Shown in pieces: positions 9,307 to 24,853 of a stretch of DNA of 57,366 bases. Within the stretch, counting starts at the first letter, position 1, and every line of letters begins with the position of its first letter. The notes below the pieces were generated by a model. The model saw nothing but the letters and a program-made list of their open reading frames with translations, was not told the DNA's origin and did no database searches. This stretch comes from Solirubrobacterales bacterium. Its GTDB lineage: Bacteria; Actinomycetota; Thermoleophilia; Solirubrobacterales; Solirubrobacteraceae. The stretch spans positions 1 to 57,366 of the forward strand of contig JAFAZV010000453.1 in the NCBI GenBank assembly GCA_019239445.1, given 5' to 3'. Position numbers and translations under genes: made by a program.

Positions 9307-10893
9307 CTACCTCGGCTGGCCGTCGATTAGACCCCACTTCTTGACGTTCGCCAGCACCTTCTCGCGGATCTCTGGTGGGTAGGTCGTGTCGAACCCGATC
9401 CGGACCGGAATATCAGCGCTGTTCCATTCGATTGGCCAGGTGCAATCGAAGAGGCAGTTCCCGCCGCCGTACAAAGCGTTCCAGAGCGGACCCTTCGGTA
9501 GGTAGGGCAGAATCGGACTGTTCCCGTACCCGGGGTAAATATAGATATCGCGGATCGGGTTGCACTTGGTGAACAGCGCGTGCAGCACTTGACCCGTGTT
9601 CGCCGGGTCGACATCGTCGTCGACGACGATCACGAACGAATAGAAGGAGCCCCAGTGTGTGCTCCACACCGTCGATGCGATCCGCTGCGGGATGCCGGCA
9701 TAGAGCACGCGGTTCGGCATGGTCGGATGAAACTCCTGTTCATGGGCACCCATGCTCCGTGGCTTCTCGACCCCTTTGGGCGTTGAGACGACGATCGTAC
9801 TGAGGCCCGCTTGCATCCAGACCGCCACCTTGCAGCCCGGAAGCCCCTGGGCCGCGAGCCTTTCCTTTACCTCGGGAGGTGCGTAGAGCGTTTGGATGAG
9901 CTCGTCGGAGCCCGGAATGCCTAGGCAGGTCCCGGGGAAGATCGGGTCCTCACGGTAGGTCACCGCCGAAACCTTGCAGACGGGTCGCTGTTGGACCTCC
10001 ATCGTCGCGTAGCCCGCATACTCGCCAAACGGTCCCTCATCGCGCGTCTCGTCCGGATACACCATGCCCTCCACCACGACCTCCGCATCGGCCGGGACAT
10101 AGAGGTCGACCGTCTTGCACTTGACGAGCTTGACCGGCTCTCCGCGGATCCCGCCGGCGACCTCGACCTCGGACACGCCATACGGGCACCCGCTGCCGGC
10201 GACGATGCTGTACACCGGGTCGCCGCCAAAGAACTGCACGTACTCCATGGTCTCTCCGCGCTCGGCATGCTTCTTCAAGATCATGCCGCCGTGGTTGGCC
10301 GGGTTCGCCCAGACGCCACACGTGCGCTCGTCGAATACCTGCGATCGATAGGTGCCCCAATTGACCCAGTCGCTATCGGGGTCCTTGGTTACGCAATTGG
10401 TCATCGTGCCGATGTAGCGGCCGCCGTCCACGGGAGTGAACTTGGGGATCGGAAACTTGAAGAGGTCAATCTCGTTACCGAGCATCACGTTCTGCTGACA
10501 AGCACCGGTGTCGACAACGGTCGGCTTGATGCGCCGCGCGGAGACCCCTCCGTAGAAATCGATGAGGTCGTGGTAGCTCGTCTCGGGCGGCAACCCCAGG
10601 ATCACGGCGATGCGTTCGTACGTTGCCCACAGCCCGCCGAGAAGGCTTGCGCCCTCCATCGCGCCTTTGATGCTGCTAAACAGTTGCGCGGGCGAGCCAT
10701 GCTCATTGGCGTAGCGCATCACCGCGCCGGCCTCGATGTCCCAGTCGACCGGGTCATCGATCTGCACCACCAGCCCGAGACCGCGCATCCGGTCGAGACA
10801 GGCGCGCAAGTCCATGCTCCCATGCCCGTTCTCGGCGCCGGTTTTAAACTCGGCTGTTCCTGGCGCACTCTTCGACCCAGTCGTGGCTGCCAT
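9307..10893 (-). CDS. ubiD: UbiD-family prenylated-FMN decarboxylase
   Basis: 528 residues. UbiD enzymes reversibly decarboxylate aromatic or alpha,beta-unsaturated acids using prenylated FMN made by UbiX, which is encoded immediately upstream. Visible family marks are LDRMRGLGLVVQIDDPVDWD at the N-terminus, the metal/cofactor region NWGTYRSQV, and DEGPFGEYAGY around residue 285, which carries the conserved Glu pair of the catalytic Glu-Arg-Glu set. The C-terminal WPIEWN is also present. The ATG at 10893 has a strong Shine-Dalgarno (AAGGAG). Substrate class is open; phenolic acid decarboxylase/carboxylase types are the closest by style. Confidence 0.93.
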   Translation of the reverse strand: MAATTGSKSAPGTAEFKTGAENGHGSMDLRACLDRMRGLGLVVQIDDPVDWDIEAGAVMRYANEHGSPAQLFSSIKGAMEGASLLGGLWATYERIAVILGLPPETSYHDLIDFYGGVSARRIKPTVVDTGACQQNVMLGNEIDLFKFPIPKFTPVDGGRYIGTMTNCVTKDPDSDWVNWGTYRSQVFDERTCGVWANPANHGGMILKKHAERGETMEYVQFFGGDPVYSIVAGSGCPYGVSEVEVAGGIRGEPVKLVKCKTVDLYVPADAEVVVEGMVYPDETRDEGPFGEYAGYATMEVQQRPVCKVSAVTYREDPIFPGTCLGIPGSDELIQTLYAPPEVKERLAAQGLPGCKVAVWMQAGLSTIVVSTPKGVEKPRSMGAHEQEFHPTMPNRVLYAGIPQRIASTVWSTHWGSFYSFVIVVDDDVDPANTGQVLHALFTKCNPIRDIYIYPGYGNSPILPYLPKGPLWNALYGGGNCLFDCTWPIEWNSADIPVRIGFDTTYPPEIREKVLANVKKWGLIDGQPR

Positions 10894-10964: not shown

Positions 10965-11657
10965 TCAGGGCTTTCCGTTGGGGACCATCGGTGCGATCGC
11001 TGGGTAATCGGCTGTCATGCTCGTTTGCTGAGGTGAGAGACTCGCAAGCCCGTTGGTCTGCGCAGCCGGCTGGTGCGGTGATGTCATGTTGGGACCTCGC
11101 CAGCGCAGAAACAGGTCGTCGCTGAGTTCGACATTCACGAGGTCCAGCGTGCGATTCACTGTCTGATCGACAATGTCACCGAGCGTTCGCGGACGCTGAT
11201 AGAACGCGGGGACGGGCGGCATCACAACCGCCCCCAGTTCGGCGACCTGCACAAGCAGCCGGAGATGACCAAGGTGTAATGGGGCCTCCCGTACCAGCAA
11301 CACGAGTTTCCGGCGCTCCTTGAGAGTCACGTCTGCGGCACGCATCAGAAGGTTGTCCGAAAAAGACGTCGCGATCCCGGACAGCGTCCTGATCGAACAA
11401 GGGGCCACGATCATCCCGTCCGTCCGGAACGAACCCGAGGAAATTGCCGCCGCGATATCGCCGGCTCGATACACGTGATCCGCCAGCGCGTTGACCTGTT
11501 CGACGGAACGATCGGTTTCCAGCTTGATCGTCTGTCTGGCTGCCGTGCTGAGGACCAGGTGCGTCTCGACATCCGCAACGCCACGCAGCACCTCCAAAAG
11601 GCGGATTCCATAGACGGCGCCGCTCGCCCCCGAGATGCCGATGATCAGCTGTTTCAA
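10965..11657 (-). CDS. ubiX: UbiX-family flavin prenyltransferase
   Basis: About 230 residues. UbiX transfers a dimethylallyl group to FMN to make the UbiD cofactor. Visible are the N-terminal flavin-binding LIIGISGASGAVYGIRLLEV, the conserved MIVAPCSIRTLSGIATSFSD, and the C-terminal LVREAPLHLGHLRLL and MPPVPAFY. The frame is open to 11732, but TTG at 11657 stands four bases after AAGGAG and begins exactly at the conserved core (LKQLIIG), so I chose it. A non-conserved tail of about 35 residues follows the domain. It is 71 bases ahead of ubiD. A copy of the 30-bp element (11754-11783) points into this gene. Confidence 0.9.
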   Translation of the reverse strand: MKQLIIGISGASGAVYGIRLLEVLRGVADVETHLVLSTAARQTIKLETDRSVEQVNALADHVYRAGDIAAAISSGSFRTDGMIVAPCSIRTLSGIATSFSDNLLMRAADVTLKERRKLVLLVREAPLHLGHLRLLVQVAELGAVVMPPVPAFYQRPRTLGDIVDQTVNRTLDLVNVELSDDLFLRWRGPNMTSPHQPAAQTNGLASLSPQQTSMTADYPAIAPMVPNGKP

Positions 11658-11753
11658 AGGTTCTCCTTGCATCCAGAGCTCAACGACTTGATCGACTCGC
11701 ATGGACGGTGCTCTGGCGTGGCCGTCACGCACCCCTAAGCTTGTTCTCGGCGG

Positions 11754-13240: not shown

Positions 13241-13918
13241 CTAGGCGGAGTCCTGCGCGCTCGTCCCGCCGACAGGAAGCGGGCGCCGCGCGATCTTCGC
13301 GGCATCGTCGGCGGACAGCCCGAAGAGCCGGAGAACTCCTTCAGCGTGGTAGATGTCGGCATCCTTGGGCGCCTGACCATCGAGGACGGCGCGCATCACG
13401 TAGAGGAGCGCGCCGCCGGCGGCGAACACGGCGAGGCCCTCGTGCGGCACGCTCAGGCGGCCGGCTCTTATGCCCGCGCGCAGATCGCGCCGTGCGTAGA
13501 AACCGAGCGAGGCGAGCACGACATTGTGCGAGACGTCGAGGCGCACGAGCAGCCACGCCCACGCAGGGTCGCGGCGAGCACGACGCACGAACGTGCGATG
13601 CGCTACGGAGATGATTTCCGCCGGATCGTCGAGCTGAGCCGTGAGAGCGTCGATCTCAGCGCCCTGAGCCGCGACGGTTTCGGCCAGAACCGCCTCGATG
13701 ATCGCCTCCTTGCTCTGGAAGTGGTTGTAGAACGACCCAAACCCGACGTCGGCCTCGTTGGTGATCTCCTGGATCCGAGTGTTGTCGACTCCTTGGCGTG
13801 CGAACAGCGATTTGGCGGCCTGGATCAGCTTTGTGCGCGTCGCTTCGCGGCGGCGGGTGTGCCGGTCGGGCTGCGTAGTCATCGTCGCGACGGTATCGGT
13901 CGTGGACTGGCGAGTCAT
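13241..13918 (-). CDS. TetR-family transcriptional regulator
   Basis: 225 residues. The N-terminal helix-turn-helix is textbook: TRTKLIQAAKSLFARQGVDN, then IQEITNEADVGFGSFYNHFQ and SKEAIIEAVL. The C-terminal two-thirds is the variable ligand-binding domain. The ATG at 13918 gives a 24-residue leader before the HTH; ATG at 13882 is an alternative. It is divergent from the eight-gene catabolic operon, with only 68 bases between start codons, so it very probably represses that operon and itself through the promoter at 13950-13979. The inducer is likely a pathway substrate or CoA thioester. Confidence 0.92.
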   Translation of the reverse strand: MTRQSTTDTVATMTTQPDRHTRRREATRTKLIQAAKSLFARQGVDNTRIQEITNEADVGFGSFYNHFQSKEAIIEAVLAETVAAQGAEIDALTAQLDDPAEIISVAHRTFVRRARRDPAWAWLLVRLDVSHNVVLASLGFYARRDLRAGIRAGRLSVPHEGLAVFAAGGALLYVMRAVLDGQAPKDADIYHAEGVLRLFGLSADDAAKIARRPLPVGGTSAQDSA

Positions 13919-13949
13919 CGGTCGTCGATAAGTGATGAGAATTTCATAC

Positions 13950-13979
13950 TTGACAATTTTATCAGTTATGGAGTAACCT
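13950..13979 (+). promoter_or_regulatory. Leaderless-type promoter of the catabolic operon
   Basis: A perfect TTGACA (13950-13955) and TAACCT (13974-13979, a TANNNT -10) are 18 bases apart. The -10 ends seven bases before the ATG at 13987, the distance seen for leaderless actinobacterial mRNAs that start at the A of ATG. There is no Shine-Dalgarno. An imperfect dyad, AAGT-N14-ACTT, at about 13930-13951 overlaps the -35 and is a candidate TetR operator. The stretch is markedly AT-rich for this genome. Confidence 0.7.
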
Positions 13980-13986
13980 GCCGCCC

Positions 13987-15621
13987 ATGAGCACTACAGA
14001 GGTCATCCACCCGTCCACGGAGAGCGACTTCGACGTCGCGATCGTCGGGTACGGGCCAGTCGGTCAGGCGCTCGCGGCCCTGCTGGGACGCGCCGGTCAT
14101 CGCGTGGCGGCGTTCGAGCGCTTCAAGGAGATCTACCGGATGCCGCGTGCCGTCCACCTCGATCACGAGATCATGCGGCTGCTGCAGGCGCTCGGGCTGG
14201 CCGACGTGCTGGCCAAGGAGATGGTCCCCGTCCGCGACTATCAGTGGCTGGGCGCTGACGGTGAGCCGCTGTTGCGGTTCGACCCTCAGAACCCGGCACC
14301 GTCCGGATGGGAAGGGTCCTACATGTTCTTCCAGCCAGAGCTCGAGACCTCGATCCATCGCGATGCGTGCCTCCCGGCGGACGTGACCGTGGAGCGCGGC
14401 TGGGTCGCCGAGGGGCTAGAGGACCTGGGCGACCGGGTCGAGCTGACGCTTCACCGGGTAAGCGAGGAGGAGCCGGGCCAGCTCACGAGCACCGGTGAGT
14501 ACCGCAGAGTGCGTGCCAGGTGGGTGGTCGGGGCGGACGGAGCAAACTCCTTCGTGCGCGAGACGTGCGGAATCAGCCGCCGCGACCTCGGCTTTCAGGA
14601 GCGATGGCTGGTGGTCGACGCCGAGCCCCATGACATGCGTGCGCTCGCTCACCTCCCGATCGCCAGCCAGCGGTGTGATCCCGCACGCCCGACCACGGTC
14701 GTGCAGAGCGGTCCCCGTCACCGGCGCTGGGAGTTCATGCTGCTCCCGCACGAGCAGCCGTCCGATTTCGAGGACCCTGAGCGGGTATGGGCCCTTCTCG
14801 AACCGTGGTACCGGCCGGAGGACGGGCCGCTGACGCGCAGCACCGTGTACGAGTTCCGGTCGAAGGTGGCCGAGCGGATGCGCACCGGTCGCATGCTGAT
14901 CGTCGGCGACGCGGCCCACCTGACGCCGCCGTTCCTGGGGCAGGGGCTCTGCAGTGGTCTGCGCGACGCCGCGAACGTGGCGTGGAAGCTTGACCTGGTG
15001 TTGCGCGGGCTCGCCTCCGAACGGCTGCTCGACACTGTCGAGCGCGAGCGACAGCCGCAGAACGAGGCCGTGATCCGGTTCGCCATCGAGTTGGGAAAGG
15101 TCCTGTGCCAGCTCGACCCGAAGGCCGCCGCCGAGCGTGACGTGATGCTGCGCGAAGCCGGTCCACCGCCACCGCTCGAGCTGGCGCCGTTGACCGCCGG
15201 TCTGCTCCATCAGCCGATCGGTGAACCCGATCCACTTGCCGGAACGCTGAGCGTCCAAGGGGTCGTGGAGCACGCGGGCCAAGAAGGGCGATTCGACGAT
15301 GTGGTCGGCCGTGGCTTTCAGCTGATCGTCGCAGACGGAGATCCGTTTGAGCATCTCTCGAGCCGCCACCGGACCCTGCTGGACATGCTCGGAGCGACGG
15401 TGACCTCACTTGATCCGGCCGCCCCCCGAGGCGTTCGCGATCGCGACGGGCGCCTCACAGCTTGGCTCTCCGCGCACAACGCCCACGCCGTCCTCATACG
15501 GCCTGATTTCTACGTGTTTGGCGGCGCCGCCTCGGCCGAGGCCGTCCCCGACCTGCTGGACGACCTCCACACCCAGCTGCAGATCAAGTTCACAGCCGCC
15601 ACCTCAGGAGCCCTCAGATGA
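13987..15621 (+). CDS. FAD-dependent aromatic hydroxylase (MhpA-like)
   Basis: 544 residues, the size of 3-(3-hydroxyphenyl)propionate hydroxylases (class A flavin monooxygenases, NAD(P)H-dependent ortho-hydroxylation of phenols). Visible are the Rossmann FAD motif VAIVGYGPVGQALAALLGRA, the mid-protein GADGANSFVRE, and the second FAD motif IVGDAAHLTPPFLGQGLCSG around residue 310. The C-terminal thioredoxin-like extension is also present. It is the first gene of the operon and its leaderless promoter lies directly upstream. Its stop overlaps the dioxygenase start (ATGA), consistent with hydroxylation followed by ring cleavage. Confidence 0.9.
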   Translation: MSTTEVIHPSTESDFDVAIVGYGPVGQALAALLGRAGHRVAAFERFKEIYRMPRAVHLDHEIMRLLQALGLADVLAKEMVPVRDYQWLGADGEPLLRFDPQNPAPSGWEGSYMFFQPELETSIHRDACLPADVTVERGWVAEGLEDLGDRVELTLHRVSEEEPGQLTSTGEYRRVRARWVVGADGANSFVRETCGISRRDLGFQERWLVVDAEPHDMRALAHLPIASQRCDPARPTTVVQSGPRHRRWEFMLLPHEQPSDFEDPERVWALLEPWYRPEDGPLTRSTVYEFRSKVAERMRTGRMLIVGDAAHLTPPFLGQGLCSGLRDAANVAWKLDLVLRGLASERLLDTVERERQPQNEAVIRFAIELGKVLCQLDPKAAAERDVMLREAGPPPPLELAPLTAGLLHQPIGEPDPLAGTLSVQGVVEHAGQEGRFDDVVGRGFQLIVADGDPFEHLSSRHRTLLDMLGATVTSLDPAAPRGVRDRDGRLTAWLSAHNAHAVLIRPDFYVFGGAASAEAVPDLLDDLHTQLQIKFTAATSGALR

Positions 15622-16211
15622 CCGATAACGGAGTGATCCACCCAAAGTTCCATCACGTCAACCTCAAGACGACCCGGCTGCGGGAGATGATCGACTTCTA
15701 CCGCGTGCTCGTCGGCGCCGAGGTGACCTTCCAAGACGACGCCGGTGCCTGGTTGTCAAACGACGAAGCCAATCACCGGATCGCGCTGCTCGCGTTCTCC
15801 AACTTCGTCGATGACCCTGACAAGGACACGCGCACCGGTATGCACCATTCCGCATTCGAGTACGAGACCTTTGAGGACCTGAACTCGACCTATCTGCGCC
15901 TCCAGGACGCCGGGATCAGCCCCGCGTTATGCCTCGACCACGGGATGACGCTCTCCTACTACTACGCCGACCCGGATGGAAACCACGTCGAGCTGCAGGT
16001 CGACTGCTTCGGCGACTGGGAGAAGTCGAAGGAGTGGATGCACCTGTCGGATGAGTTCAAGGCCAACCCGATCGGCCATTTCGTAGATCCCGAACGGATA
16101 GCTGGCGACTACGCCGACGGGAAGAGCTTCGCTGACATTCATGCCAAGGCAATGGCCGATGGGTATGCGCCCGAGCAGGCGCCCGTTGACGTCCCGGAGA
16201 TGAGCTCGTGA
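15618..16211 (+). CDS. VOC-family extradiol dioxygenase-like protein
   Basis: 197 residues, a single vicinal-oxygen-chelate unit. Type I extradiol dioxygenases cleave catechols next to the hydroxyls using Fe(II) held by His-His-Glu. Candidate ligands are visible: His in FHHVNLKTTRLREMIDFY, His in TGMHHSAFEYE, and Glu in PDGNHVELQVDCFGDW. Its position between the ring hydroxylase and an FAH-family hydrolase supports a ring-cleavage role. One-domain VOC proteins also include glyoxalases and epimerases, so the reaction is not proven. Start overlaps the previous stop. Confidence 0.85.
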   Translation: MTDNGVIHPKFHHVNLKTTRLREMIDFYRVLVGAEVTFQDDAGAWLSNDEANHRIALLAFSNFVDDPDKDTRTGMHHSAFEYETFEDLNSTYLRLQDAGISPALCLDHGMTLSYYYADPDGNHVELQVDCFGDWEKSKEWMHLSDEFKANPIGHFVDPERIAGDYADGKSFADIHAKAMADGYAPEQAPVDVPEMSS

Positions 16212-17029
16212 GACTCTGCCGATTCGATGCCGGTGACGGCGCCCAGTGCGGGATCGTCGACGACGGATACGTGGTCCACCGGGACAACATGGCCGAGCGG
16301 CATGCTGTCGCCGACGTCCGATTCCTGGCGCCTGTCCTGCCTCGCAAATTCCTTGCCATCGGGCTCAACTACGCGGACCACATTGCCGAGTCGGGCATGG
16401 AGGCACCGCAGTTCCCTGTGTTCTTCAACAAGCAGATCACGTGCGTCGTCGGTCCGGACGACGACGTGCACATGCCGGCCGTGTCGAACCTGCTCGACTA
16501 CGAGGGTGAGCTCGCGGTTGTGATCGGAACCCGCTGCCGCCACGTACCCGAGGAGCGCGCACACGAGGTGATCGCCGGCTACACCATCACCAACGACGTG
16601 TCCGTGCGCGACTGGCAGATACGCACACCAACGATGACTATGGGCAAGTCGTTCGACACCCACGGGCCGCTCGGCCCTTGGGTTGTGACCGCCGACGAGC
16701 TCGGCGATCCGCACGACCTGACGCTCCGGACGTTCGTGAACGGCGAGCTACGCCAGGACGGCAACACTGGCGAGATGATCTACAACTGCTACCAGCAGGT
16801 AGCTCACCTGTCCGAAGCCTTCACCCTCGAGCCTGGCGATGTCATCGCAACCGGCACGCCGGCCGGGATCGGGGCCGTGCGTCAACCATTCCCAGAAGGA
16901 TTGCTCAAGGTCGGCGACGTCATCAGGATCGAGATCGACGGCATCGGTGAGCTCTCCAATACGGTCGTCGAAGAGCCAGACGGGTTCGTCGTAGCGGCGA
17001 ATGAGGAGGCGCCGGCATGGGCCTCGTGA
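16208..17029 (+). CDS. Fumarylacetoacetate hydrolase family protein
   Basis: 273 residues. FAH-family enzymes hydrolyse C-C bonds of diketo acids or act as hydratases, decarboxylases or isomerases in meta-cleavage pathways. The core is well preserved: PRKFLAIGLNYADHIAESG, NKQITCVVGPDDDVHMP, LDYEGELAVVIG (metal ligands Glu-x-Glu), GYTITNDVSVRDWQ, GKSFDTHGPLGPWVV, and GDVIATGTPAGIGAV. GTG at 16208 overlaps the previous stop (GTGA). No separate MhpC-type alpha/beta hydrolase is adjacent, so this protein is the best candidate for processing the ring-fission product. Confidence 0.92.
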   Translation: MRLCRFDAGDGAQCGIVDDGYVVHRDNMAERHAVADVRFLAPVLPRKFLAIGLNYADHIAESGMEAPQFPVFFNKQITCVVGPDDDVHMPAVSNLLDYEGELAVVIGTRCRHVPEERAHEVIAGYTITNDVSVRDWQIRTPTMTMGKSFDTHGPLGPWVVTADELGDPHDLTLRTFVNGELRQDGNTGEMIYNCYQQVAHLSEAFTLEPGDVIATGTPAGIGAVRQPFPEGLLKVGDVIRIEIDGIGELSNTVVEEPDGFVVAANEEAPAWAS

Positions 17030-18909
17030 CCGACAAGCTGTGGCCCCAGCTGAGCGGTCCAACCGACCTAGGCGAGATCGAGCGCGTCGCTCTGAGCGAA
17101 CGCGGCCTGCCTGCGAGCACCTACGAGCTCGTGCGCCGAGCGGCAGAGGTGTGGCCTGACCGGCCGGCGACGTCGGTGCTAACCGAGGCGGAACGGTTCC
17201 TGGCCCCACGCGTTCGGACGTTCGCCGACCTCGCCGACGAGGTCCACCGGGCGGCGGACATCCTGTTTGGATTGGGCGTGAGGCGAGGCGATGCGGTGGC
17301 CGTGATATCGGTCAACTGCGCCCAGTTGCTGCCGCTCTTGCTCGCCGCCGAGTCCGTCGGCATCTATGCGCCGATCAACCCCGGCTTAGCGCCCGAGCAC
17401 GCCATCGAACTCGTACGTTTGTCCGGCGCCGCAGTGATCGTCGCGTCCGGGCCAGAGCTTGCCCCGGATGTCTGGCTGCACGCGCGCGCGATCGCGGAGA
17501 GCACCGGAGCGCGAGCGCTGCTGGCGCTGCGTCCCACGACAACCTCGCAAGCACCGCCGGCGCTGGAGCCGCTCGAAGACTTGGAGGTCGCTTATCTGGA
17601 TGAACGCATGGCCGACGCTGAAGCTGCGGCGCTGCCTGGACCTCCGCCGGCTTCCGACGACATCGCCAGTTATCTGCATACCGGCGGTACCACAGGCACC
17701 CCAAAGCTCGCTGCCCGCACACACGCGAACGAGGTCTCCAATGCCTGGATGATCGCGGCACGCGACATCCTCGACCAGGACAGCGTCATGTTCGCGGCGC
17801 TTCCGCTGTTTCACACCAACGCGCTGCTGGTGACAGTGCTGGCGCCGTTGCTCAAGGGTCAACATGTTGTCTGGGGCGGTCCGCTCGGCTACCGCGATCC
17901 CGGCCTGTTTAAGAACTTCTGGAAGATCGTCGAGCACTACCGGATCGCAGCGATGTCCGCGGTACCAACGGTCTACTCGGTCCTCGCGGAGGTGCCGCTC
18001 GACGGCGACATCTCCACCCTCAAGCTGCCGATCGTCGGGGCCGCACCACTTCCGCCGGCGGTGGCCAACGCATTCGAAGCTAGGACCGGCGTTCGGCTGT
18101 GCGAGGGGTACGGACTCACCGAGGGCACCTGTGCAAGCGCGTTCAGCTGGCCTGACACGCCGCGCCACAGCACGGTCGGCCAGCGCCTGCCCTACCAGGA
18201 GGCGCGCGCGGTAGGAATCGACGAAGCGACCGGCGAGTGGACGTTCCTGCCCGACGGTGAAGTGGGGACGCTTGTCATGCGCGGTCCGAACATATTCGCC
18301 GGCTACCTCGTCCGAGACGACGTCGGGACGCACCTGCGCCTCGACGGAAAGGTCAAGGAGGGCTGGCTTGACACTGGCGACCTGGCCGCCGTCGACGCTG
18401 ACGGCTTCATCCGACTCGCCGGGCGAGCTAAGGATCTGATCATCCGCGGCGGCCACAACATCGATCCAGCATGGATCGAAGATGCGCTGCTCGAGCACCC
18501 GGACGTCACTGCCGCCGCCGCCGTGGGCCGACCTGACGCTCACGCCGGCGAGGTGCCCGTGGCATTCGTCACCCTCACCGCCGGAAGCAGGCTCACGCCC
18601 GACGAGCTGGCGGCGTGGGCTACCCAGCACGTGCCCGAGCGTGCCGCCGCGCCAAGGCACGTCCAGATCATCGACGAGATCCCGCTCACCTCGGTCGGCA
18701 AGCAGTACAAGCCGGAGCTGCGCCGCCGAGCAGCCGAGCAGGCTGCGCGCGCGGCACTGACCGAGACGGGCCTGGCCGACGCCGTGCGGGCGGTTCTCAT
18801 CGACGGGGCGATCGAAATCCACGTCCCGCGCTCGGACTCGGACGAAGAGGTCCGGGCAGTGCTCTCGCAGTACGCCTGGACATGGAAGCTGACAGGCAGA
18901 GAGCGATGA
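17017..18909 (+). CDS. AMP-dependent acyl-CoA ligase
   Basis: 630 residues, ANL superfamily. The AMP/P-loop motif is HTGGTTGTPKLAARTH (around residue 228), followed by CEGYGLTEGTCASAF, the hinge region WLDTGDLAAVDADGFIRLAG with RAKDLIIRGGHNIDP, and the catalytic Lys region TSVGKQYKPELR. It activates a carboxylic acid to its CoA thioester. The ATG overlaps the FAH gene by 13 bases. Sitting directly upstream of YceI and an acyl-CoA dehydrogenase, it probably feeds a CoA-linked lower pathway. It is about 80 residues longer than average, with a long N-terminus and a C-terminal tail. Confidence 0.93.
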   Translation: MGLVTDKLWPQLSGPTDLGEIERVALSERGLPASTYELVRRAAEVWPDRPATSVLTEAERFLAPRVRTFADLADEVHRAADILFGLGVRRGDAVAVISVNCAQLLPLLLAAESVGIYAPINPGLAPEHAIELVRLSGAAVIVASGPELAPDVWLHARAIAESTGARALLALRPTTTSQAPPALEPLEDLEVAYLDERMADAEAAALPGPPPASDDIASYLHTGGTTGTPKLAARTHANEVSNAWMIAARDILDQDSVMFAALPLFHTNALLVTVLAPLLKGQHVVWGGPLGYRDPGLFKNFWKIVEHYRIAAMSAVPTVYSVLAEVPLDGDISTLKLPIVGAAPLPPAVANAFEARTGVRLCEGYGLTEGTCASAFSWPDTPRHSTVGQRLPYQEARAVGIDEATGEWTFLPDGEVGTLVMRGPNIFAGYLVRDDVGTHLRLDGKVKEGWLDTGDLAAVDADGFIRLAGRAKDLIIRGGHNIDPAWIEDALLEHPDVTAAAAVGRPDAHAGEVPVAFVTLTAGSRLTPDELAAWATQHVPERAAAPRHVQIIDEIPLTSVGKQYKPELRRRAAEQAARAALTETGLADAVRAVLIDGAIEIHVPRSDSDEEVRAVLSQYAWTWKLTGRER

Positions 18910-19442
18910 GCACGACCAGACCCAGCACGCCCGCACCGCGTACTCGCGATCTCGAGGCGTCGCGCTGGCGGGTGGATCCCGCGCGTTCGAGCGTCGCGTT
19001 CGAGACCCCGACCCTCTGGGGCCTGGTCACCGTCAAAGGCCGGTTTGAGCGCTACGACGGCACGCTGGATCTACGGCACGCGCCGGGGGTCGAGTTGACG
19101 ATCGAGGCAGCCAGCCTGAACACGCACAACCAGATCCGCGACAAGCACCTGCGATCGGCCAATTTCTTCGACGCGGAGAACCACCCGGAGGTCCGCTTCG
19201 TATCTGACAGCGCGACGCTGGACGGTGAGCAGCTCAAGCTCCGTGGCCGGCTCAGCGTAGCCGGGACCAGCATGCCGCTCGAGCTGCACGCCAGGTTACG
19301 TCGTGCGGGCGACGAGCTCGAGGTCGATGCCACGACGTTCGCCGACCACCGCGCGCTCGGAATGACGCACTCGACGCTCGGCATGATTCGTTCCCCCAGC
19401 AAGCTGATCGTCCATGGCCGGCTGGTTCGAGACCCTGACTAG
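18906..19442 (+). CDS. YceI family protein (polyisoprenoid-binding-like)
   Basis: 178 residues of the YceI lipocalin-like fold, whose known members bind polyisoprenoids or other long hydrophobic molecules. Visible are WRVDPARSSVAFETPTLWGL, VKGRFERYDGTLDL, the central IRDKHLRSANFFDAENHPEV and LRGRLSVAGTSMPLEL. There is no signal peptide, so it should be cytoplasmic, unlike E. coli YceI. ATG at 18906 overlaps the ligase stop (ATGA); the longer open frame upstream is not conserved. Its role in the operon is unknown; binding a hydrophobic substrate or polymer precursor is a guess. Confidence 0.9.
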   Translation: MSTTRPSTPAPRTRDLEASRWRVDPARSSVAFETPTLWGLVTVKGRFERYDGTLDLRHAPGVELTIEAASLNTHNQIRDKHLRSANFFDAENHPEVRFVSDSATLDGEQLKLRGRLSVAGTSMPLELHARLRRAGDELEVDATTFADHRALGMTHSTLGMIRSPSKLIVHGRLVRDPD

Positions 19443-19465
19443 CCAGAACGGAGCGATGTAGGACG

Positions 19466-20662
19466 ATGACGGCAATCACGGAAACCGATATAGGCCGCGG
19501 GCTTGGTACGGATTACCTCCTGCTGCGAGACGAGCTGACCCACCAGGAGTTGGATTACCTGGATCGGACGCGGCGGTTCGTGGACGACGAGGTGCTACCC
19601 GTCATGCCGGGGTACTGGGAGCGCGCTGAGCTGCCGCTCGACCTGATTCGCCGGCTTGGGGAGCTCGGCCTCGTTGGCGACGGGATCGACGGCTACGGCT
19701 GCCCGCCAATGACTCCCGTCGCAGCGGGATTAATCCAGATGGAGCTCAGTCGCGGAGACGGCAGTCTCGGGACGCTGCTGGGGGTCCAGGCCGGGTTGGC
19801 CATGCGCTCGATTGCGATGTTCGGCACAGAGGAGCAGAAGCAGCGGTGGCTGCCGGCGATGGCGCAGATGGAGGCGCTTGGAGCTTTTGCGCTGACCGAG
19901 CCGGAGCACGGTTCGGACTCAGTGGCGCTGGAGACAACCGCCCACCGCGAGGGCCGGGAGTACGTGATCGATGGGAGCAAACGCTGGATCGGCAACGGCT
20001 CGCTGGCCGACGTGGTCGTGGTGTGGGCACGCGACAGCGCTGATCGGCAAGTCAAGGGCTTCCTGGTAGAGCGCGGCACGCCCGGCTACAACGCTCAGGT
20101 GATCCAGGGCAAGGGCAGCGTCCGCTCGGTCTGGCAGGCCGATATCGAGCTTCGCGGTGTGCGCGTTCCCGAGAACGCCCGCCTCCCGGTGGCTGGCAGC
20201 TTCGCGGACGTGGGCCGAGTGCTGGCCTCGACACGCGTCACCTGCGCGTTCGCGGCGCTTGGCCACGCCCTCGGGGCTTACGACGCAGCATTGACTTACT
20301 GCCGCGAGCGCCGGCAGTTCGGCAAGCCGCTGGTCAGCTTCCAGATCGTGCAGGAACGGCTCGTGAAGATGCTCGCGGAGGTAACCGCAATGCAGCTGTA
20401 CTGCCTGCGTGTTGGTCGGCTGGCCGCGAACCATCACCTCCGCGACACGATCGCGGGGCTCGCCAAGATGAACAACACCACGCGCGCGCGGCAGGTGATC
20501 TCGCAAGCCCGCGACCTCCTCGGCGGCAATGGGATCCTGCTCGAGAACCACGTGATCCGCCACATGGCTGACATCGAGGCCATCCACACCTTCGAGGGGA
20601 CCGAGACGATCCAGACGCTGATCGTCGGGCGAGACATCACCGGCGTGAGCGCGTTCGTGTGA
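19466..20662 (+). CDS. Acyl-CoA dehydrogenase, glutaryl-CoA dehydrogenase-like
   Basis: 398 residues. FAD-dependent alpha,beta-oxidation of an acyl-CoA. Family marks are GAFALTEPEHGSDSVAL, YVIDGSKRWIGNGSLADVVV, CRERRQFGKPLVSFQ, ARDLLGGNGI and HTFEGTETIQTLIVGRDITG, where the Glu of FEGTE is the catalytic base. The C-terminal pattern (HVIRHMADIEAIHTFEGTE) is that of glutaryl-CoA dehydrogenases, which oxidise and decarboxylate glutaryl-CoA. This agrees with an aromatic or alicyclic pathway ending in a dicarboxyl-CoA, but the substrate-binding Arg cannot be verified here. It follows YceI by 23 bases. Confidence 0.9.
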   Translation: MTAITETDIGRGLGTDYLLLRDELTHQELDYLDRTRRFVDDEVLPVMPGYWERAELPLDLIRRLGELGLVGDGIDGYGCPPMTPVAAGLIQMELSRGDGSLGTLLGVQAGLAMRSIAMFGTEEQKQRWLPAMAQMEALGAFALTEPEHGSDSVALETTAHREGREYVIDGSKRWIGNGSLADVVVVWARDSADRQVKGFLVERGTPGYNAQVIQGKGSVRSVWQADIELRGVRVPENARLPVAGSFADVGRVLASTRVTCAFAALGHALGAYDAALTYCRERRQFGKPLVSFQIVQERLVKMLAEVTAMQLYCLRVGRLAANHHLRDTIAGLAKMNNTTRARQVISQARDLLGGNGILLENHVIRHMADIEAIHTFEGTETIQTLIVGRDITGVSAFV

Positions 20663-20679
20663 GGTGGACGGAGCAGACA

Positions 20680-22398
20680 ATGACACCGAACGACACAGAC
20701 GAGCGCTCACAGGTGGGGTTGCGGCCGGCGGCACGCGCCGGCCTCGACGTCATGCTCACAGATGCCGTGATGGGCAACGGCGGTGTCGGCAGGGTCCTCA
20801 AGCCCCGGGCCGCGGCGCGCACGATCGCAGGACTGGCGCGACATCCTCGGCGGGCTACACGCGACGCAGCCGGCCTGGGCGTGGAGCTGGCGCGCGTGGC
20901 GGCCGGACGCTCCGACGCCGCAGCGCCCAAGGGCGACCGGCGATTCGGCGACCGCGCGTGGCAGGACAACTGGCTTCTGCGCCGAGTGATGCAGGCCTAT
21001 CTCGCCACCTGCGACACGGTCGATCGGCTGATTTCGGACGCCGAGCTCGACTGGCGGACGGAGCGCCAGGCGCGGTTCGCGGCCGGCAACCTGCTCGACG
21101 CGCTCGCCCCGACCAACTTCCCGTGGTCGAACCCGGCCGTACTCAAGGAGAGTATCGACCAAGGCGGCGGCAACCTGGTCCGAGGCGGCCGTCGTTTCTT
21201 GCGCGACATGACGCAGTCGCCGCGCCTTCCGGCGAGCGTGGACGTAACCAAGTTCGAGGTCGGTGGGAACCTCGCCGTCACGCCCGGGTCGGTGGTGTGG
21301 CGGACGGAGGTGTTCGAGCTGATCCAGTACGGCCCGGTGACAGAGCGAGTCCACGAAGTGCCGCTGCTGTTCGTGCCGCCGACGATCAACAAGTACTACA
21401 TCCTCGACATCTCGCCGGGGCGGAGCATGGTGCAGTGGCTGCTCGAACAACAGCAGCAGGTGTTCACCATCTCCTGGCGCAACCCTGACGTACCCCAGGG
21501 CCACTTCGATCTAGATACCTACGCGCAGGCCGTGTTGGAGGCGCGGGACGTGGTGGCGGAGATCACCGGCCAGCGTGCGGTGAACGTCAACGCGGCGTGC
21601 TCGGGCGGGATCATCACTGCGTGCGCGGTCGGGCACCTAGCCGCGATCGGCGAGCAAGACAAGGTGGGGGCGCTGACGATGATGGTGTGCGCGCTCGACC
21701 AGGCACGGATGGGCACGGCGGGAGCATTCGCCAGCCGCGAGCTCGCGGCCGCCGCGGTGGCCGAGTCAGCGCGCAAGGGCTACATCGACGGCCGGGCACT
21801 CGAGGGAGTGTTCGCCTGGCTGCGTCCCAACGACCTCGTCTGGAACTACTTCGTCAACAACTATCTGCTCGGCAACGACCCGCCGGCGTTCGACATCCTG
21901 TACTGGAACCAGGACACGGTGAGGCTGGCTGCCGGCCTGCACCGCGACTTCATCCACGCTGCGCTCGATAACGCGCTCACGCGCCGCGGGGCGGTCGAAA
22001 CGCTCGGCACCCCCATCGATCTCGGGGCCATCGAGCTGGACAGCTACAGCGTCGCCGGGCTGCGCGATCACATCGTGCCTTGGGAGAACGCCTACCGCAG
22101 CGCGCAGCTGCTTGGGGGCACCAAGCGGTTCGTGCTCTCGACCAGCGGCCATATCCAGGCGTTGGTCAATCCGCCGAGTGCGGAAAGCCGCGCCAGCTAT
22201 CGCGTCACGGACGATCCTGCAGGCGAACCGGAGGCGTGGGTCGAGACAGCCGATGTAAAGCGGGGGAGCTGGTGGCCGGACTATCGCGAGTGGCTTAGCG
22301 AGCGCGCGGGGGAGCTGATGCCGGCTCCGAAGACCCTGGGGAGCCGGGAGCACAAGGCCACCGCGAAGGCGCCAGGCAGCTACGTGCATGCGAGCTGA
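20680..22398 (+). CDS. PHA synthase-like alpha/beta-hydrolase
   Basis: About 572 residues, similar to class I/II polyhydroxyalkanoate synthases (PhaC), which polymerise 3-hydroxyacyl-CoA. Visible are LLFVPPTINKYYILDISPGR, VFTISWRNPD, the nucleophile region NVNAACSGGIITACA, the acid GLRDHIVPWENAYRSAQLLG, and the His in FVLSTSGHIQALVNPP, so Cys, Asp and His are all in place. The lipase-like box starts with Ala instead of Gly (AACSG). GTG at 20659 overlaps the previous stop, but ATG at 20680 has GGAG eight bases upstream and I prefer it. No PhaA/B, PhaE or phasin gene is adjacent. Confidence 0.85.
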   Translation: MTPNDTDERSQVGLRPAARAGLDVMLTDAVMGNGGVGRVLKPRAAARTIAGLARHPRRATRDAAGLGVELARVAAGRSDAAAPKGDRRFGDRAWQDNWLLRRVMQAYLATCDTVDRLISDAELDWRTERQARFAAGNLLDALAPTNFPWSNPAVLKESIDQGGGNLVRGGRRFLRDMTQSPRLPASVDVTKFEVGGNLAVTPGSVVWRTEVFELIQYGPVTERVHEVPLLFVPPTINKYYILDISPGRSMVQWLLEQQQQVFTISWRNPDVPQGHFDLDTYAQAVLEARDVVAEITGQRAVNVNAACSGGIITACAVGHLAAIGEQDKVGALTMMVCALDQARMGTAGAFASRELAAAAVAESARKGYIDGRALEGVFAWLRPNDLVWNYFVNNYLLGNDPPAFDILYWNQDTVRLAAGLHRDFIHAALDNALTRRGAVETLGTPIDLGAIELDSYSVAGLRDHIVPWENAYRSAQLLGGTKRFVLSTSGHIQALVNPPSAESRASYRVTDDPAGEPEAWVETADVKRGSWWPDYREWLSERAGELMPAPKTLGSREHKATAKAPGSYVHAS

Positions 22399-23233
22399 GG
22401 GCTCGCACGCACCGGCGCCCGCGAGCAAGGCCGGGAGCTCGGAATACGAGGATGGCGAGCGCTTCGTCTTCGGCGCGGAGCCAATCCGCGAGCGCTGGTG
22501 GGGCCGGCCGCTGGCAGAGACGCGCGGCGGGCTCGAGCTTGCGCGCCTGCTCACCGACCCGGTGTGGCGTGGCGCCGGCGTGCCGCGCGGCGACGGCCGT
22601 CCGATCGTATTGATGCCCGGGTTCCTGGCCGGCGACCAGACGCTCACCGTGATGGCGGCGTGGTTGCGGCGGCTTGGCTACCGTCCGCGATTCTGCGGGT
22701 TCTTCGCCAACACCGGCTGCTCGGACCGCACGCTCGACCGCGTGGAGCGAAGAGTCGAAGGCCTGTGGCGCCAGTACGGCCGCCGCGTCGCGTTGCTCGG
22801 CCATAGCCGCGGCGGCCACTTCGCCCGTGCCCTCGCCGCCCGGCGGCCAGATCGCGTCTCCCACGCGATCTCGATGGGCGCCGACCTCCAGGGAATGTTC
22901 GGCGCCAGCGCCCCGACGCTGTTCGCGGTCCGCGTCGCTCGCCGCGTGGTCCACGCCACCGGACGAGCGCGCCGAGAGGCTTGTCTGTCCGCCCACTGCG
23001 GCTGCCCGTTTAGCCACGACTTCGCCCGGCGGTTCCCGTTCCAGCACGTGCGGCTCACGAGCATCTACTCCAAGGGAGACGGCGTCGTCCACTGGCAATC
23101 CCAGGTGATCCCAAACGCCGACTGCATCGAGGTGACCGGCAGCCACATCGGGCTGATCTTCAACCGCAAGGCCTACCGGGCGCTCGCCGGTGCCCTCGCG
23201 CTTCCTGAGCTGTCGCCGGCTACGGCTGCTTGA
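22388..23233 (+). CDS. Alpha/beta hydrolase (lipase/esterase-like)
   Basis: 281 residues. The oxyanion-hole region PIVLMPGFLAGDQTL, the nucleophile elbow LLGHSRGGHFARALA (GHSRG, catalytic Ser), a late Asp in YSKGDGVVHW and a final His in VTGSHIGLIF form a complete triad. No signal peptide is evident. The ATG overlaps the PHA-synthase-like gene by 11 bases, so it is the last gene of the operon. Next to a PhaC-like protein, an intracellular polymer depolymerase or thioesterase role is possible but unproven. Confidence 0.85.
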   Translation: MRAEGSHAPAPASKAGSSEYEDGERFVFGAEPIRERWWGRPLAETRGGLELARLLTDPVWRGAGVPRGDGRPIVLMPGFLAGDQTLTVMAAWLRRLGYRPRFCGFFANTGCSDRTLDRVERRVEGLWRQYGRRVALLGHSRGGHFARALAARRPDRVSHAISMGADLQGMFGASAPTLFAVRVARRVVHATGRARREACLSAHCGCPFSHDFARRFPFQHVRLTSIYSKGDGVVHWQSQVIPNADCIEVTGSHIGLIFNRKAYRALAGALALPELSPATAA

Positions 23234-23336: not shown

Positions 23337-23399
23337 GTGACCCAGCCGGATAAGTTGAGCGAGGCAACTAGGCGCGCCGAGAAAGCGTCCGCCCGGTGA
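23337..23399 (+). CDS. Micro-ORF with PDK motif, coupled to PAP2-DGK gene
   Basis: 20 codons: VTQPDKLSEATRRAEKASAR. A purine-rich Shine-Dalgarno (GGGAGAGG) stands just before the GTG, and the stop overlaps the next gene's GTG as GTGA. The peptide is charged and helix-prone. A second short ORF with the same x-PDK-x beginning lies in front of the GH15 gene at 26847. It may be a real small protein or a coupling leader; no function is known to me. Confidence 0.5.
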   Translation: MTQPDKLSEATRRAEKASAR

Positions 23400-24853
23400 C
23401 ACGTCGTCTCGCGGGCGCAGCCGATCGCCGGCTGATGCAGCGGTGGACGCGGCGGCGGCCGCAGCCCACCGACGAGCTGCTGCTGATGATCAGCCAAGCG
23501 GCTGATCGCTCGCTGCTGTGGCTGGCGATCGCCGCGACAGGGTCCGCGTTTGGAGGCAAGCGCGGCAGGCGCGCTGCCGAGCGCGGCGTGCTCGCGCTCG
23601 CGGTGGCGTCCGCGACCGTCAACGGGCCGTTCAAGCTGTTGGTCGGCCGCCGTCGGCCGGCCCCGATCCGTCGACTTCGTCGCGTCCCGCGTTCCTCGTC
23701 GTTTCCATCAGGACATTCCGCGTCCGCGTTCGCGTTCGCGGTAGCAGCCACCAGGGAGCTGCCGCAAGCTGGCGTGTTGCTGTTGCCACTCGCTGCGAGC
23801 GTCGCGTACTCGAGGGTTTATCTGGGGCTGCATCACCCAAGCGACGTGGCGGCGGGGGCTGCGTTCGGCGCCGCCGTCGGAACAGCGGCACGCGCGGCCG
23901 CCGGAAGGCTCGGCCTCGGCGAGAACGGGTTGGCGCAGAGCACCGCAGCCTCGTTGCCTTCAGAGACGGTGCTCGTCGTGAGCCCACGTGCAGGCAGCAG
24001 CCGCGGGCTCGCGCGTGCCCGTCGCGCGCTGGTCGAACACGGGATCGAGGTCACTGAGGAGCTCAACATCGAACATCTCAATCGACTGCCCGGGCTGCTG
24101 CGGACGGCGGCCGGGGAACCCCGTCTGGTGATCGCGGCCGGCGGTGATGGCACTGTCGGCTCGGTGGCAGGTCACCTGGCGCGCGCGGACAACGTGCTCG
24201 GCATCCTGCCGCTTGGGACCGGCAACGACTTCGCCCGCTCGCTTGATATTCCGATGAACCCGGCGCGGGCCGCCGCCCTGCTCGCCACCGGCCAAATCTC
24301 GAGCGTTGACCTCGGTCGCCTCACACGTGCTGGTCAGCCGCCGTCGTACTTCGCGCACGCCGCTACGGTCGGACTGAACGTCGACTTCGCAAAGCTGGCC
24401 ACTCGCGCTTCGGCTCGCGCTCGTCTTGGTCGCCTCACCTACCTGGCCGCAGCCGTCTACGCGGTTCGTGAGCGGGCCACGTTCCAGTGCACGCTGGAAC
24501 TCGACGGCGTTGTCGATAAATTGACCCTGCTTCAGCTCTCGGTGATCAGCGCACGCGTCATCGGCGGTGCGCTCGGGCTGAACCTGAAGGGCCCTCATCC
24601 AGACGACCACCTGCTCGACGTCCTCGCCGTGGAAGACGTCCCGCCTCCGAAGATGCTCCGCGCTGGGTTGTTTCTGCTGCTTGGGATCAAGCGGCCCGTG
24701 CCAGGCGTCCGCGCCCTTCACGTCAAACGTGTCTACGTAGAAAGCGAGCTTCCGCTCGAGCTGACCATCGACGGTGAGCTCGACGGGGCCCTCCCCGGGC
24801 AGTTCGACGCGGTCGCTGGGGCCATCCGTGTCATCACGCCTCGCGACTCGTAG
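23396..24853 (+). CDS. PAP2 phosphatase - diacylglycerol kinase fusion
   Basis: 485 residues in two domains. Residues about 20-165 are a membrane PAP2 phosphatase: LLVGRRRPAPIRRL supplies the KxxxxxxRP-like motif, SSSFPSGHSASAFAFA the PSGH motif, and SRVYLGLHHPSDVAAG the SRxxxxxHxxxD motif. Residues about 190-480 are a diacylglycerol/lipid kinase catalytic domain with LVIAAGGDGTVGSVAGHL (GGDGT) and ILPLGTGNDFARSLDI. The pairing of opposite activities (lipid phosphate removal and addition) in one chain is seen in actinobacteria and suggests membrane lipid turnover. GTG at 23396 overlaps the micro-ORF stop. Confidence 0.92.
   Translation: MTRRLAGAADRRLMQRWTRRRPQPTDELLLMISQAADRSLLWLAIAATGSAFGGKRGRRAAERGVLALAVASATVNGPFKLLVGRRRPAPIRRLRRVPRSSSFPSGHSASAFAFAVAATRELPQAGVLLLPLAASVAYSRVYLGLHHPSDVAAGAAFGAAVGTAARAAAGRLGLGENGLAQSTAASLPSETVLVVSPRAGSSRGLARARRALVEHGIEVTEELNIEHLNRLPGLLRTAAGEPRLVIAAGGDGTVGSVAGHLARADNVLGILPLGTGNDFARSLDIPMNPARAAALLATGQISSVDLGRLTRAGQPPSYFAHAATVGLNVDFAKLATRASARARLGRLTYLAAAVYAVRERATFQCTLELDGVVDKLTLLQLSVISARVIGGALGLNLKGPHPDDHLLDVLAVEDVPPPKMLRAGLFLLLGIKRPVPGVRALHVKRVYVESELPLELTIDGELDGALPGQFDAVAGAIRVITPRDS

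What the first reader, a model, noticed from the sequence alone, without database searches (positions are those of the whole stretch)
13987..23233. Eight-gene operon joining ring cleavage to CoA chemistry and a PHA-synthase-like enzyme
Gene order is ring hydroxylase, extradiol-type dioxygenase, FAH hydrolase, CoA ligase, YceI, glutaryl-CoA-dehydrogenase-like enzyme, PhaC-like protein, alpha/beta hydrolase, mostly with overlapping ends. Known meta-cleavage operons use MhpC/D/E/F-type genes, all missing here. The presence of a hydrophobe-binding YceI and a polymerase-like protein is unusual and may mean a lipophilic substrate (steroid-, terpene- or phenyl-alkyl-like acid) or storage of the product as polyester.
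Basis: partly seen in the sequence, partly recalled or inferred. Interest (0 to 1): 0.5.

Follow-up and report, generated by a model that had tools for sequence, protein, structure and literature searches.

The report
Phenol-ring cleavage operon with polyester synthase
A soil bacterium carries an eight-gene operon that probably opens an oily phenolic ring, loads the released acid onto coenzyme A, and sits in one transcription unit with an intact-looking bacterial polyester synthase, a pairing shared by only its close relatives among the genomes examined here.

Summary
The nearest named relatives are Solirubrobacterales MAGs.

The operon is two modules. (1) Flavin hydroxylase, one-domain dioxygenase, FAH hydrolase and PRK07529-type CoA ligase. 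Relatives of this set recur: in 6 of 6 Solirubrobacterales loci with a close ligase, and dioxygenase-type VOC plus FAH beside a related ligase in 11 of 13 plasmid loci examined. It does not need MhpC/D/E/F if the FAH protein is a C-C hydrolase. (2) An acyl-CoA dehydrogenase / PhaC / alpha-beta-hydrolase module, whose parts occur elsewhere without the aromatic genes.

The two are joined in 3 of 21 PhaC loci; those three PhaC form one branch (88/85), with dN/dS 0.12 and Cys-Asp-His intact.

Best reading: catabolism of a lipophilic phenol, probably resorcinol- or hydroquinone-type, to pyruvate plus an acyl-CoA; polymerisation of the acyl part is inferred only. The 'glutaryl-CoA dehydrogenase' lacks the expected arginine. 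Substrate unknown. New variant of a known kind.

The parts
13241..13918 (-). TetR-family regulator, divergent from the operon (68-bp intergenic region 13919-13986)
   Evidence: TetR_N 51.0 bits, TetR_C_40 120.7 bits; relatives at 55-65% identity beside the related clusters in G218, G275, G285
13987..15621 (+). A: MhpA-like single-component FAD aromatic hydroxylase, 544 aa
   Evidence: FAD_binding_3; NCBIfam PRK06183.1-3, 564 bits over cut-off 390
15618..16211 (+). B: one-domain VOC protein, probable ring-cleavage dioxygenase, 197 aa, predicted metal ligands His13, His77, Glu125, with His108 and Tyr115
   Evidence: Glyoxalase 52.3 bits; positions; conservation in 24 homologues; nearest solved relative 9u42
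16208..17029 (+). C: FAH-family hydrolase, 273 aa, with His58-x-x-Glu61 dyad, ExE, Asp and Lys kept
   Evidence: FAA_hydrolase 245.3 bits; motifs; alignments to HpaG and L-2,4-diketo-3-deoxyrhamnonate hydrolase
17017..18909 (+). D: AMP-forming acyl-CoA ligase of subfamily PRK07529, 630 aa
   Evidence: PRK07529.1 707.3 bits over cut-off 632; tree of 21 ligases
18906..19442 (+). E: YceI-like protein, 178 aa
   Evidence: YceI 96.8 bits for this start; ATG 18906 in the 4-bp overlap with D
19466..20662 (+). F: acyl-CoA dehydrogenase of the GCDH/ACX4 clade, not a glutaryl-CoA dehydrogenase by its substrate-site residue; absent from the operons of G009 and G016
   Evidence: Pfam; PDB alignments; absence next to the operon
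20659..22398 (+). G: PhaC polyester synthase, scoring best with the class II model but under the cut-offs of classes I and II; predicted Cys314-Asp470-His498
   Evidence: PhaC_N 188.7 bits; TIGR01839 578.8 and TIGR01838 482.4 bits; triad in 22 of 22 aligned rows, one a duplicate of the window; PDB PhaC matches
22388..23233 (+). H: alpha/beta hydrolase of unknown substrate (PhaZ-like or thioesterase-like role possible), predicted Ser140-Asp231-His253
   Evidence: Abhydrolase_1 30.9 bits; alignments; homologues near PhaC in other loci
9307..10893 (-). UbiD-family decarboxylase; upstream neighbour, not in the operon, possibly feeds it
   Evidence: UbiD 224.0 bits, TIGR00148 256.6 bits over cut-off 244.85
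10965..11732 (-). UbiX-family flavin prenyltransferase, likely partner of the UbiD gene
   Evidence: Flavoprotein 140.1 bits, PRK06029.1 273.1 bits over cut-off 188

Best explanation
A TetR-controlled catabolic operon for a lipophilic phenol, most likely a ring with 1,3- or 1,4-placed hydroxyls carrying an alkyl or acyl chain. Step 1 (inferred): hydroxylase A adds a hydroxyl to the phenol. Step 2 (inferred): dioxygenase B opens the ring beside a hydroxylated carbon. Because the ring carries a further hydroxyl, the product tautomerises to a 2,4-dioxo acid rather than a 2-hydroxymuconate. Step 3 (inferred): hydrolase C cleaves that acylpyruvate-like bond, giving pyruvate plus a carboxylic acid that keeps the side chain (for a 5-alkylresorcinol, a 3-oxo fatty acid), so MhpC/D/E/F are not needed. 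Step 4 (inferred): ligase D makes the CoA thioester. Step 5 (inferred, weaker): the acyl-CoA meets a fatty-acyl module, dehydrogenase F for saturated acyl-CoA, PhaC G to polymerise (R)-3-hydroxyacyl-CoA, and hydrolase H for turnover. YceI E may hold or shuttle a hydrophobic intermediate. What is shown is anatomy, conservation and intact catalytic residues; no reaction, and not even TetR control, is shown.
For: A-B-C-D-E-G-H in the same order in G009 and G016. Ligase, FAH, extradiol-type VOC and hydroxylase together in 6 of 6 Solirubrobacterales loci with a ligase of about 62% identity or more, the window included. Among plasmid records with a related ligase, 11 of the 13 examined (of 15 listed, 34 found) have both a VOC and an FAH gene within 7-8 kb, and 7 of 13 also a whole or partial hydroxylase match. 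As a control, in the seven PhaC loci with a different AMP-binding ligase match nearby (L038, L085, L086, L088, L090, L098, L099) no VOC or FAH homologue was found. Metal-ligand spacing of B (64 and 48) nearly equals that published for IppB (His29, His92, Glu140; 63 and 48; passages, PMC12442392); the ipp cluster also puts an FAH-like gene and an acetoacetyl-CoA-synthetase-like gene after the dioxygenase, and two Rhodococcus plasmids have VOC, FAH and acetoacetate-CoA ligase genes side by side. No MhpE over cut-off in the genome. PhaC triad intact and under purifying selection.
Against: No substrate or activity is shown. The window's dioxygenase differs in type from the ligase-side one of G218/G275/G285 and of the plasmid clusters (two-domain or split VOC), so a shared substrate is an assumption. 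Of 13 other loci with a relative of B (45-68% identity), 8 have an FAH and/or hydroxylase homologue nearby, 5 have neither, and none has D or PhaC. In ipp the cleaved ring is a hydroquinone, and the authors' pathway has a dehydrogenation and a reduction and, in the passages I saw, does not use the FAH gene, so step 3 may be wrong. In the fold comparison the five best matches are FosA structures; 9u42 is sixth with a poor superposition (rmsd 11.7), and no other characterised dioxygenase is named among the 50 shown. F is missing from the operons of G009 and G016. No phasin by two families. No 3-oxoacyl-CoA reductase gene lies in the operon.
Confidence: 0.55

Rival explanations
1. Ordinary aromatic operon whose PhaC module is a passenger: the F-G-H lipid/polyester genes were placed downstream by chance and serve general fatty-acid or PHA metabolism under a shared promoter, with no metabolic hand-over from the ring fragments. 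(Compatible with the aromatic half of the best explanation; odds here are not exclusive.)
For: F and/or H homologues accompany PhaC without A-E in several genomes, for example F-G in G021 at 86 and 83% identity; ligase clusters without a PhaC match in G218, G275, G285 and in the 13 plasmid stretches examined; the genome has a second PhaC on C140.
Against: In G009 and G016 E and G overlap by 4 bp and G and H by 11 bp, as G and H do in the window; the three linked PhaC form one branch; PhaC has the lowest dN/dS of the genes shared with G009 and G016.
Confidence: 0.3
2. Hydroquinone / homogentisate-like route: A hydroxylates para, B cleaves a hydroquinone, C acts as a fumarylacetoacetate-type hydrolase or a decarboxylase/isomerase, D activates the branched or beta-keto acid formed.
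For: Nearest solved relative of B is 9u42, titled homogentisate 1,2-dioxygenase from Acinetobacter; IppB cleaves 2-isopropylhydroquinone (passages, PMC12442392).
Against: A is most like MhpA, which hydroxylates ortho (recalled); BphC2, 84% identical to IppB, cleaves a 1,2-diol according to the same paper (passage).
Confidence: 0.25
3. Flavonoid or stilbenoid A-ring degradation of the fde/ifc type: the ring is the resorcinol/phloroglucinol part of a flavonoid and the released acid is a phenylpropanoid that D activates.
For: fde and ifc clusters pair an FAD hydroxylase with a glyoxalase-like ring-cleaving enzyme (passages, PMC11069340); a Variovorax plasmid has hydroxylase and VOC genes next to each other with an FAH gene downstream.
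Against: An aromatic acid as product would not explain PhaC or F; FdeE/FdeC/IfcA/IfcB sequences were not compared here.
Confidence: 0.15
4. Steroid, terpene or phenyl-alkyl acid degradation.
For: Possible hydrophobic binding (YceI) and CoA chemistry; A bears the NCBIfam name of a 3-(3-hydroxyphenyl)propionate hydroxylase.
Against: In the rows shown the eight genes match no steroid-ring-cleavage or MhpC/D/E/F model; no MhpE over cut-off in the genome. Steroid genes were not searched genome-wide.
Confidence: 0.06

Closest known systems
ipp gene cluster of Rhodococcus sp. D-6 (2-isopropylphenol; PMC12442392, passages seen)
   Same: One-domain VOC dioxygenase followed by an FAH-like gene and a CoA-ligase-like gene; HHE metal site with the same spacing within one residue
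   Different: ipp uses a two-component monooxygenase and an acetoacetyl-CoA-synthetase-like ligase; the part of its gene table that I saw lists no PhaC or YceI
fde (Herbaspirillum) and ifc (Variovorax) flavonoid A-ring pathways (PMC11069340, passages seen)
   Same: FAD hydroxylase plus glyoxalase-like ring-cleaving enzyme
   Different: In ifc an alpha/beta hydrolase and cupin proteins are reported beside them; sequences not compared here
Orcinol pathway of Pseudomonas (recalled, no call)
   Same: Hydroxylase, extradiol cleavage to a trioxo acid, hydrolysis to pyruvate
   Different: Genes and CoA step not compared; no PhaC recalled
mhp operon for 3-hydroxyphenylpropionate
   Same: Hydroxylase A belongs to the MhpA subfamily model
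   Different: No MhpC/D/E/F model among the rows shown; dioxygenase is VOC type rather than LigB type (the latter recalled)
pha operon for medium-chain polyesters of Pseudomonas (recalled)
   Same: PhaC with alpha/beta hydrolases beside it
   Different: PhaC scores below both class I and class II cut-offs; no phasin found; joined to ring cleavage

Membership tests
MhpA-type flavin hydroxylase | Passes NCBIfam PRK06183.1-3 | tested here: met
   564 bits, cut-off 390
mhp operon / classical meta-cleavage pathway | MhpC, MhpD, MhpE, MhpF genes | tested here: not met
   None matched among the eight genes in the rows shown; MhpE model under cut-off in the draft genome; C, D and F not searched genome-wide
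One-domain VOC extradiol-type dioxygenase (BphC2/IppB kind) | 2-His-1-Glu metal site at IppB-like spacing | tested here: met
   His13, His77, Glu125; His77 and Glu125 invariant, His13 at least 90% in 24 rows
One-domain VOC extradiol-type dioxygenase (BphC2/IppB kind) | A second-shell His, absent in FosB | tested here: met
   His108 is at least 90% conserved and aligns with His in 9u42, with no His in FosB; Tyr115 is invariant but FosB has a Tyr there too
One-domain VOC extradiol-type dioxygenase (BphC2/IppB kind) | Ring-cleavage activity | not testable with these tools
   Needs enzyme assay
FAH superfamily C-C hydrolase | PF01557 domain, His-x-x-Glu dyad, ExE, Asp, Lys (roles recalled) | tested here: met
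   245.3 bits; residues
HpaG (OPET decarboxylase/isomerase) equivalog | TIGR02303 over cut-off | tested here: not met
   210.7 of 276.4 bits
Glutaryl-CoA dehydrogenase | Model cut-off and carboxylate-binding Arg (its role recalled) | tested here: not met
   174.2 of 470 bits; the Arg of 1sir, 3sf6 and 2eba is Gly in F
PHA synthase | PhaC_N domain and Cys-Asp-His triad | tested here: met
   188.7 bits, cut-off 23.7; triad 22 of 22 rows, one a duplicate of the window; the box is AACSGG, with Ala for the first Gly, as in 8 of those 22 rows
PHA synthase class I or II | TIGR01838 / TIGR01839 over cut-off | tested here: not met
   482.4 of 622.65; 578.8 of 855.4 bits
PHA-storing system | Phasin genes | tested here: inconclusive
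   No hit for PF09361 or PF05597 in a 92.5% complete draft; other granule proteins not tested
ipp cluster | Two-component monooxygenase and AACS-type ligase | tested here: not met
   Single-component FMO and PRK07529-type ligase
fde/ifc flavonoid pathway | Sequence relation to FdeE/FdeC or IfcA/IfcB | not tested
   I did not fetch those sequences

The most novel reading that the evidence does not exclude
A ring-to-plastic operon: the ring-cleavage route delivers a 3-oxo fatty acid that ligase D turns into 3-oxoacyl-CoA; one reduction gives (R)-3-hydroxyacyl-CoA, which the co-translated PhaC polymerises. A phenolic lipid would thus be converted directly to polyester, by-passing beta-oxidation, as a dedicated and selected arrangement in Solirubrobacterales.
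Probability: 0.17. Interest if true: 0.65.

Novelty: new variant of a known kind. Interest (0 to 1): 0.45.

Why it matters
If right, a hydroxylase / VOC dioxygenase / FAH hydrolase / PRK07529 ligase set seen here in Actinobacteria and Proteobacteria is a general way to strip lipophilic phenols without the classical meta-cleavage enzymes. Its junction with a polyester synthase would be a natural one-operon link from aromatic breakdown to carbon storage, of use for bioplastics from phenolic waste. It also gives a testable function to a ligase subfamily that has only a generic name in NCBIfam.

Tried and rejected
Ten literature searches showed, in the rows listed, no description of this gene set: alkylresorcinol (8 papers), orcinol/resorcinol extradiol (none), naringenin/fde, orcinol/FAH (15 of 19 listed), Solirubrobacter PHA, acylpyruvate hydrolase (15 of 33 listed), sorgoleone (12 of 3,355 listed), ligase/FAH/extradiol/PHA, alkylresorcinol/olivetol/orcinol catabolism and PHA synthase with ring cleavage. 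The library holds only open-licence papers and I saw titles and starts of abstracts, so this is weak evidence of absence; I saw passages of two papers only.

Fold comparison of the dioxygenase model (mean pLDDT 77.9) gave FosA first and 9u42 at rank 6; it shows the VOC fold but does not decide function. The model of hydrolase H was poor (mean pLDDT 39.2) and was not used. A promoter scan found no site and no more terminator-like sites than shuffles, and my own palindrome scan of the TetR-A gap printed no hit. I considered that F makes the operon a glutaryl-CoA route; rejected on the missing arginine and its absence in G009 and G016. I considered that the operon is an mhp operon; rejected. A query named L053_FMO_b proved to be a frame-mixed ORF; its C-terminal hits are an NmrA-like gene and I do not use it as a hydroxylase.
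Full report
1. What is there. The window lies in a 4.32-Mb draft genome of 462 contigs, 92.5% complete with 6.9% contamination. Eight + strand genes run from 13987 to 23233: A hydroxylase, B VOC protein, C FAH hydrolase, D CoA ligase, E YceI, F acyl-CoA dehydrogenase, G PhaC, H alpha/beta hydrolase. Pfam confirms every name. Overlaps are 4 (A/B), 4 (B/C), 13 (C/D), 4 (D/E), 4 (F/G) and 11 bp (G/H); E/F has a 23-bp gap. A TetR gene is divergent at 13241-13918. Upstream, outside the operon, are a UbiD/UbiX pair, a branched-chain-type ABC transporter, an IclR regulator and an Amidohydro_2 gene.

2. Conservation of the operon. In G009 (L028) and G016 (L030) the order A-B-C-D-E-G-H is kept at 68-84% identity and F is missing. 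Of the window's flanking genes used as queries, only the downstream PAP2/kinase gene was found again, elsewhere on the same contig in G016. In both genomes E and G overlap by 4 bp and G and H by 11 bp. Synonymous divergence of the shared genes is similar (dS 0.63-0.97) and dN/dS lies between 0.12 and 0.31; PhaC is the lowest (0.124 and 0.117). The genes have therefore been kept together and kept functional. F has a 69% relative elsewhere in G009 and only a 43% one in G016.

3. The aromatic module. With ligase D as the probe, 5 of 299 class-level genomes match at E <= 1e-190: the window, G009, G218, G275 and G285; G016 came from the search of relatives. All 6 of these loci hold a hydroxylase, an extradiol-type VOC protein and an FAH hydrolase beside the ligase. 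In G218, G275 and G285 a TetR related to the window's is present at 55-65% identity; G009 has a TetR_N protein that is not similar enough to be found with the window's, and no family was found for the corresponding G016 ORF. The dioxygenase beside the ligase in those three is two-domain (for G218; HpaD-like at 136.7 bits in G275, under cut-off; its relative in G285 by tblastn); G218 has the window's one-domain type (64%) in addition. A P450 gene follows the ligase in G275 and G285. In plasmids, 34 records match the ligase at E <= 1e-60; of the 15 listed I examined 13. Eleven of 13 have both a VOC and an FAH gene within 7-8 kb, and 7 of 13 also a hydroxylase match, whole or partial; in the Caulobacter and P. 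aeruginosa stretches none was found. Proteins of three of these stretches (L110, L111, L112, annotated) served as probes for the unannotated ones. Three rhizobial stretches, close relatives of each other, add a FadL/TodX-type porin gene; it was probed with one porin sequence only, so divergent porins would be missed. The ligase tree puts the six Solirubrobacterales rows on one branch (99/98), next to Rhodococcus and Streptomyces.

4. Other relatives of B. Relatives at E <= 1e-30 are rare: 6 of 299 class-level and 4 of 396 phylum-level genomes, window included in each. Leaving out the window, G009, G016's operon and G218, I have 13 unannotated loci with a relative of B (L027, L032-L037, L052, L054-L058). 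An FAH and/or hydroxylase homologue is nearby in 8 of 13 (L032, L033, L034, L052, L054, L056, L057, L058), neither in 5 (L027, L035, L036, L037, L055), and D or PhaC in none. Some of these contigs are short. Among annotated plasmids, two Rhodococcus records have VOC, FAH and acetoacetate-CoA ligase genes side by side with an FAD monooxygenase, and a lichen isolate of Paraburkholderia has VOC-FAH with a monooxygenase nearby, while the Priestia and Agrobacterium tumefaciens relatives lack this company. B is thus often, not always, in such a set.

5. Catalytic residues. In B, His13, His77 and Glu125 are spaced 64 and 48 residues; the published IppB ligands His29, His92 and Glu140 are spaced 63 and 48. 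In 24 homologues His77, Glu125 and Tyr115 are invariant and His13 and His108 at least 90% conserved. His108 aligns with a His in 9u42 and not in FosB; Tyr115 has a counterpart in both. C keeps the His-x-x-Glu dyad, the ExE and Asp positions and the Lys, and aligns over most of its length with a 2,4-diketo-acid hydrolase and with HpaG. F keeps the glutamate of the T-[FY]-E-G-T stretch but has Gly where 1sir, 3sf6 and 2eba have Arg, so it is better seen as a dehydrogenase of non-dicarboxylic acyl-CoA; the roles of that Glu and Arg are recalled. G keeps Cys314, Asp470 and His498, as do all 22 aligned rows, one a duplicate of the window. H keeps Ser140, with Asp231 and His253 as likely partners.

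6. The PhaC module. A search of 146 family genomes found 16 with a PhaC at E <= 1e-150, 21 loci in all. Three of 21 carry A-E. F homologues of 66% or more lie beside PhaC in the window, G021, G022, G023 and G742, before PhaC in the first two and after it in the others, and a C-terminal F fragment lies near H in G001; H homologues of about 53% or more lie in the fetched stretch of ten loci including the three linked ones. Several stretches are short contigs, so these counts are lower bounds. In G021 no A-E gene was found in the 1.3 kb before F, where the contig ends. The three linked PhaC form one branch (88/85) with G021 as sister. The simplest history is a single joining of a PhaC module to an aromatic module, with F lost, or gained in the window, later.

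7. How it most likely works. The hydroxylase is of the MhpA subfamily, so the substrate is probably a phenol. The classical follow-up enzymes are not in the operon, and an MhpE model finds nothing over cut-off in the draft genome. An FAH-type hydrolase can act if the ring-fission product is a 2,4-dioxo acid, which follows when the ring carries a further hydroxyl, as in resorcinol-type rings; this is chemical inference, with the orcinol pathway as a recalled precedent and fde/ifc as partial precedents for the first two steps (passages). The products would be pyruvate and an acid bearing the side chain, which D activates. With an alkyl chain the acid is a 3-oxo fatty acid, one reduction away from a PhaC substrate. 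Eight MaoC-like domain matches in the genome could supply enoyl-CoA hydration instead. Against polymer storage: no phasin by two families and a PhaC below both class cut-offs.

8. Verdict. The set A-B-C-D is a recurring alternative to MhpC/D/E/F operons and not an oddity. The real oddity is the conserved junction with PhaC, found in 3 of 21 PhaC loci and in 3 of the 6 Solirubrobacterales ligase loci, and in none of the 13 plasmid stretches. It is a new variant of a known kind, with the substrate open.

Noticed in passing
window 23396-24853 (+): A PAP2 phosphatase domain fused to a diacylglycerol-kinase-type domain with YegS_C lies downstream of the operon; a 73% relative is on the same contig as the operon in G016 (L031).
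   Followed up: no
window 633-7538: Amidohydro_2 gene, IclR regulator and branched-chain-type ABC transporter genes upstream; Amidohydro_2 genes also stand in related clusters, three in a row between VOC and hydroxylase in L034 and one after the VOC genes in L112, perhaps decarboxylases of resorcylic-type acids.
   Followed up: partly
L038 (own genome, contig C140): A second PhaC (54% identical) lies with two AMP-binding ligases, an acyl-CoA dehydrogenase match and an HMG-CoA reductase.
   Followed up: no
L028 13113-14933 (-): G009 has a second FAD ring hydroxylase of another subfamily (606 aa, Rng_hyd_C) whose end overlaps the start of A by 4 bp, so its substrate may need two hydroxylations.
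   Followed up: partly
L088 509-667: A C-terminal fragment of F (residues 346-398, 91% identical) sits next to an H homologue in G001, a possible remnant.
   Followed up: no
window 20659-22398: The nucleophile box of the linked PhaC reads AACSGG, with Ala for the first Gly, shared by 8 of 22 aligned rows, one a duplicate of the window.
   Followed up: partly
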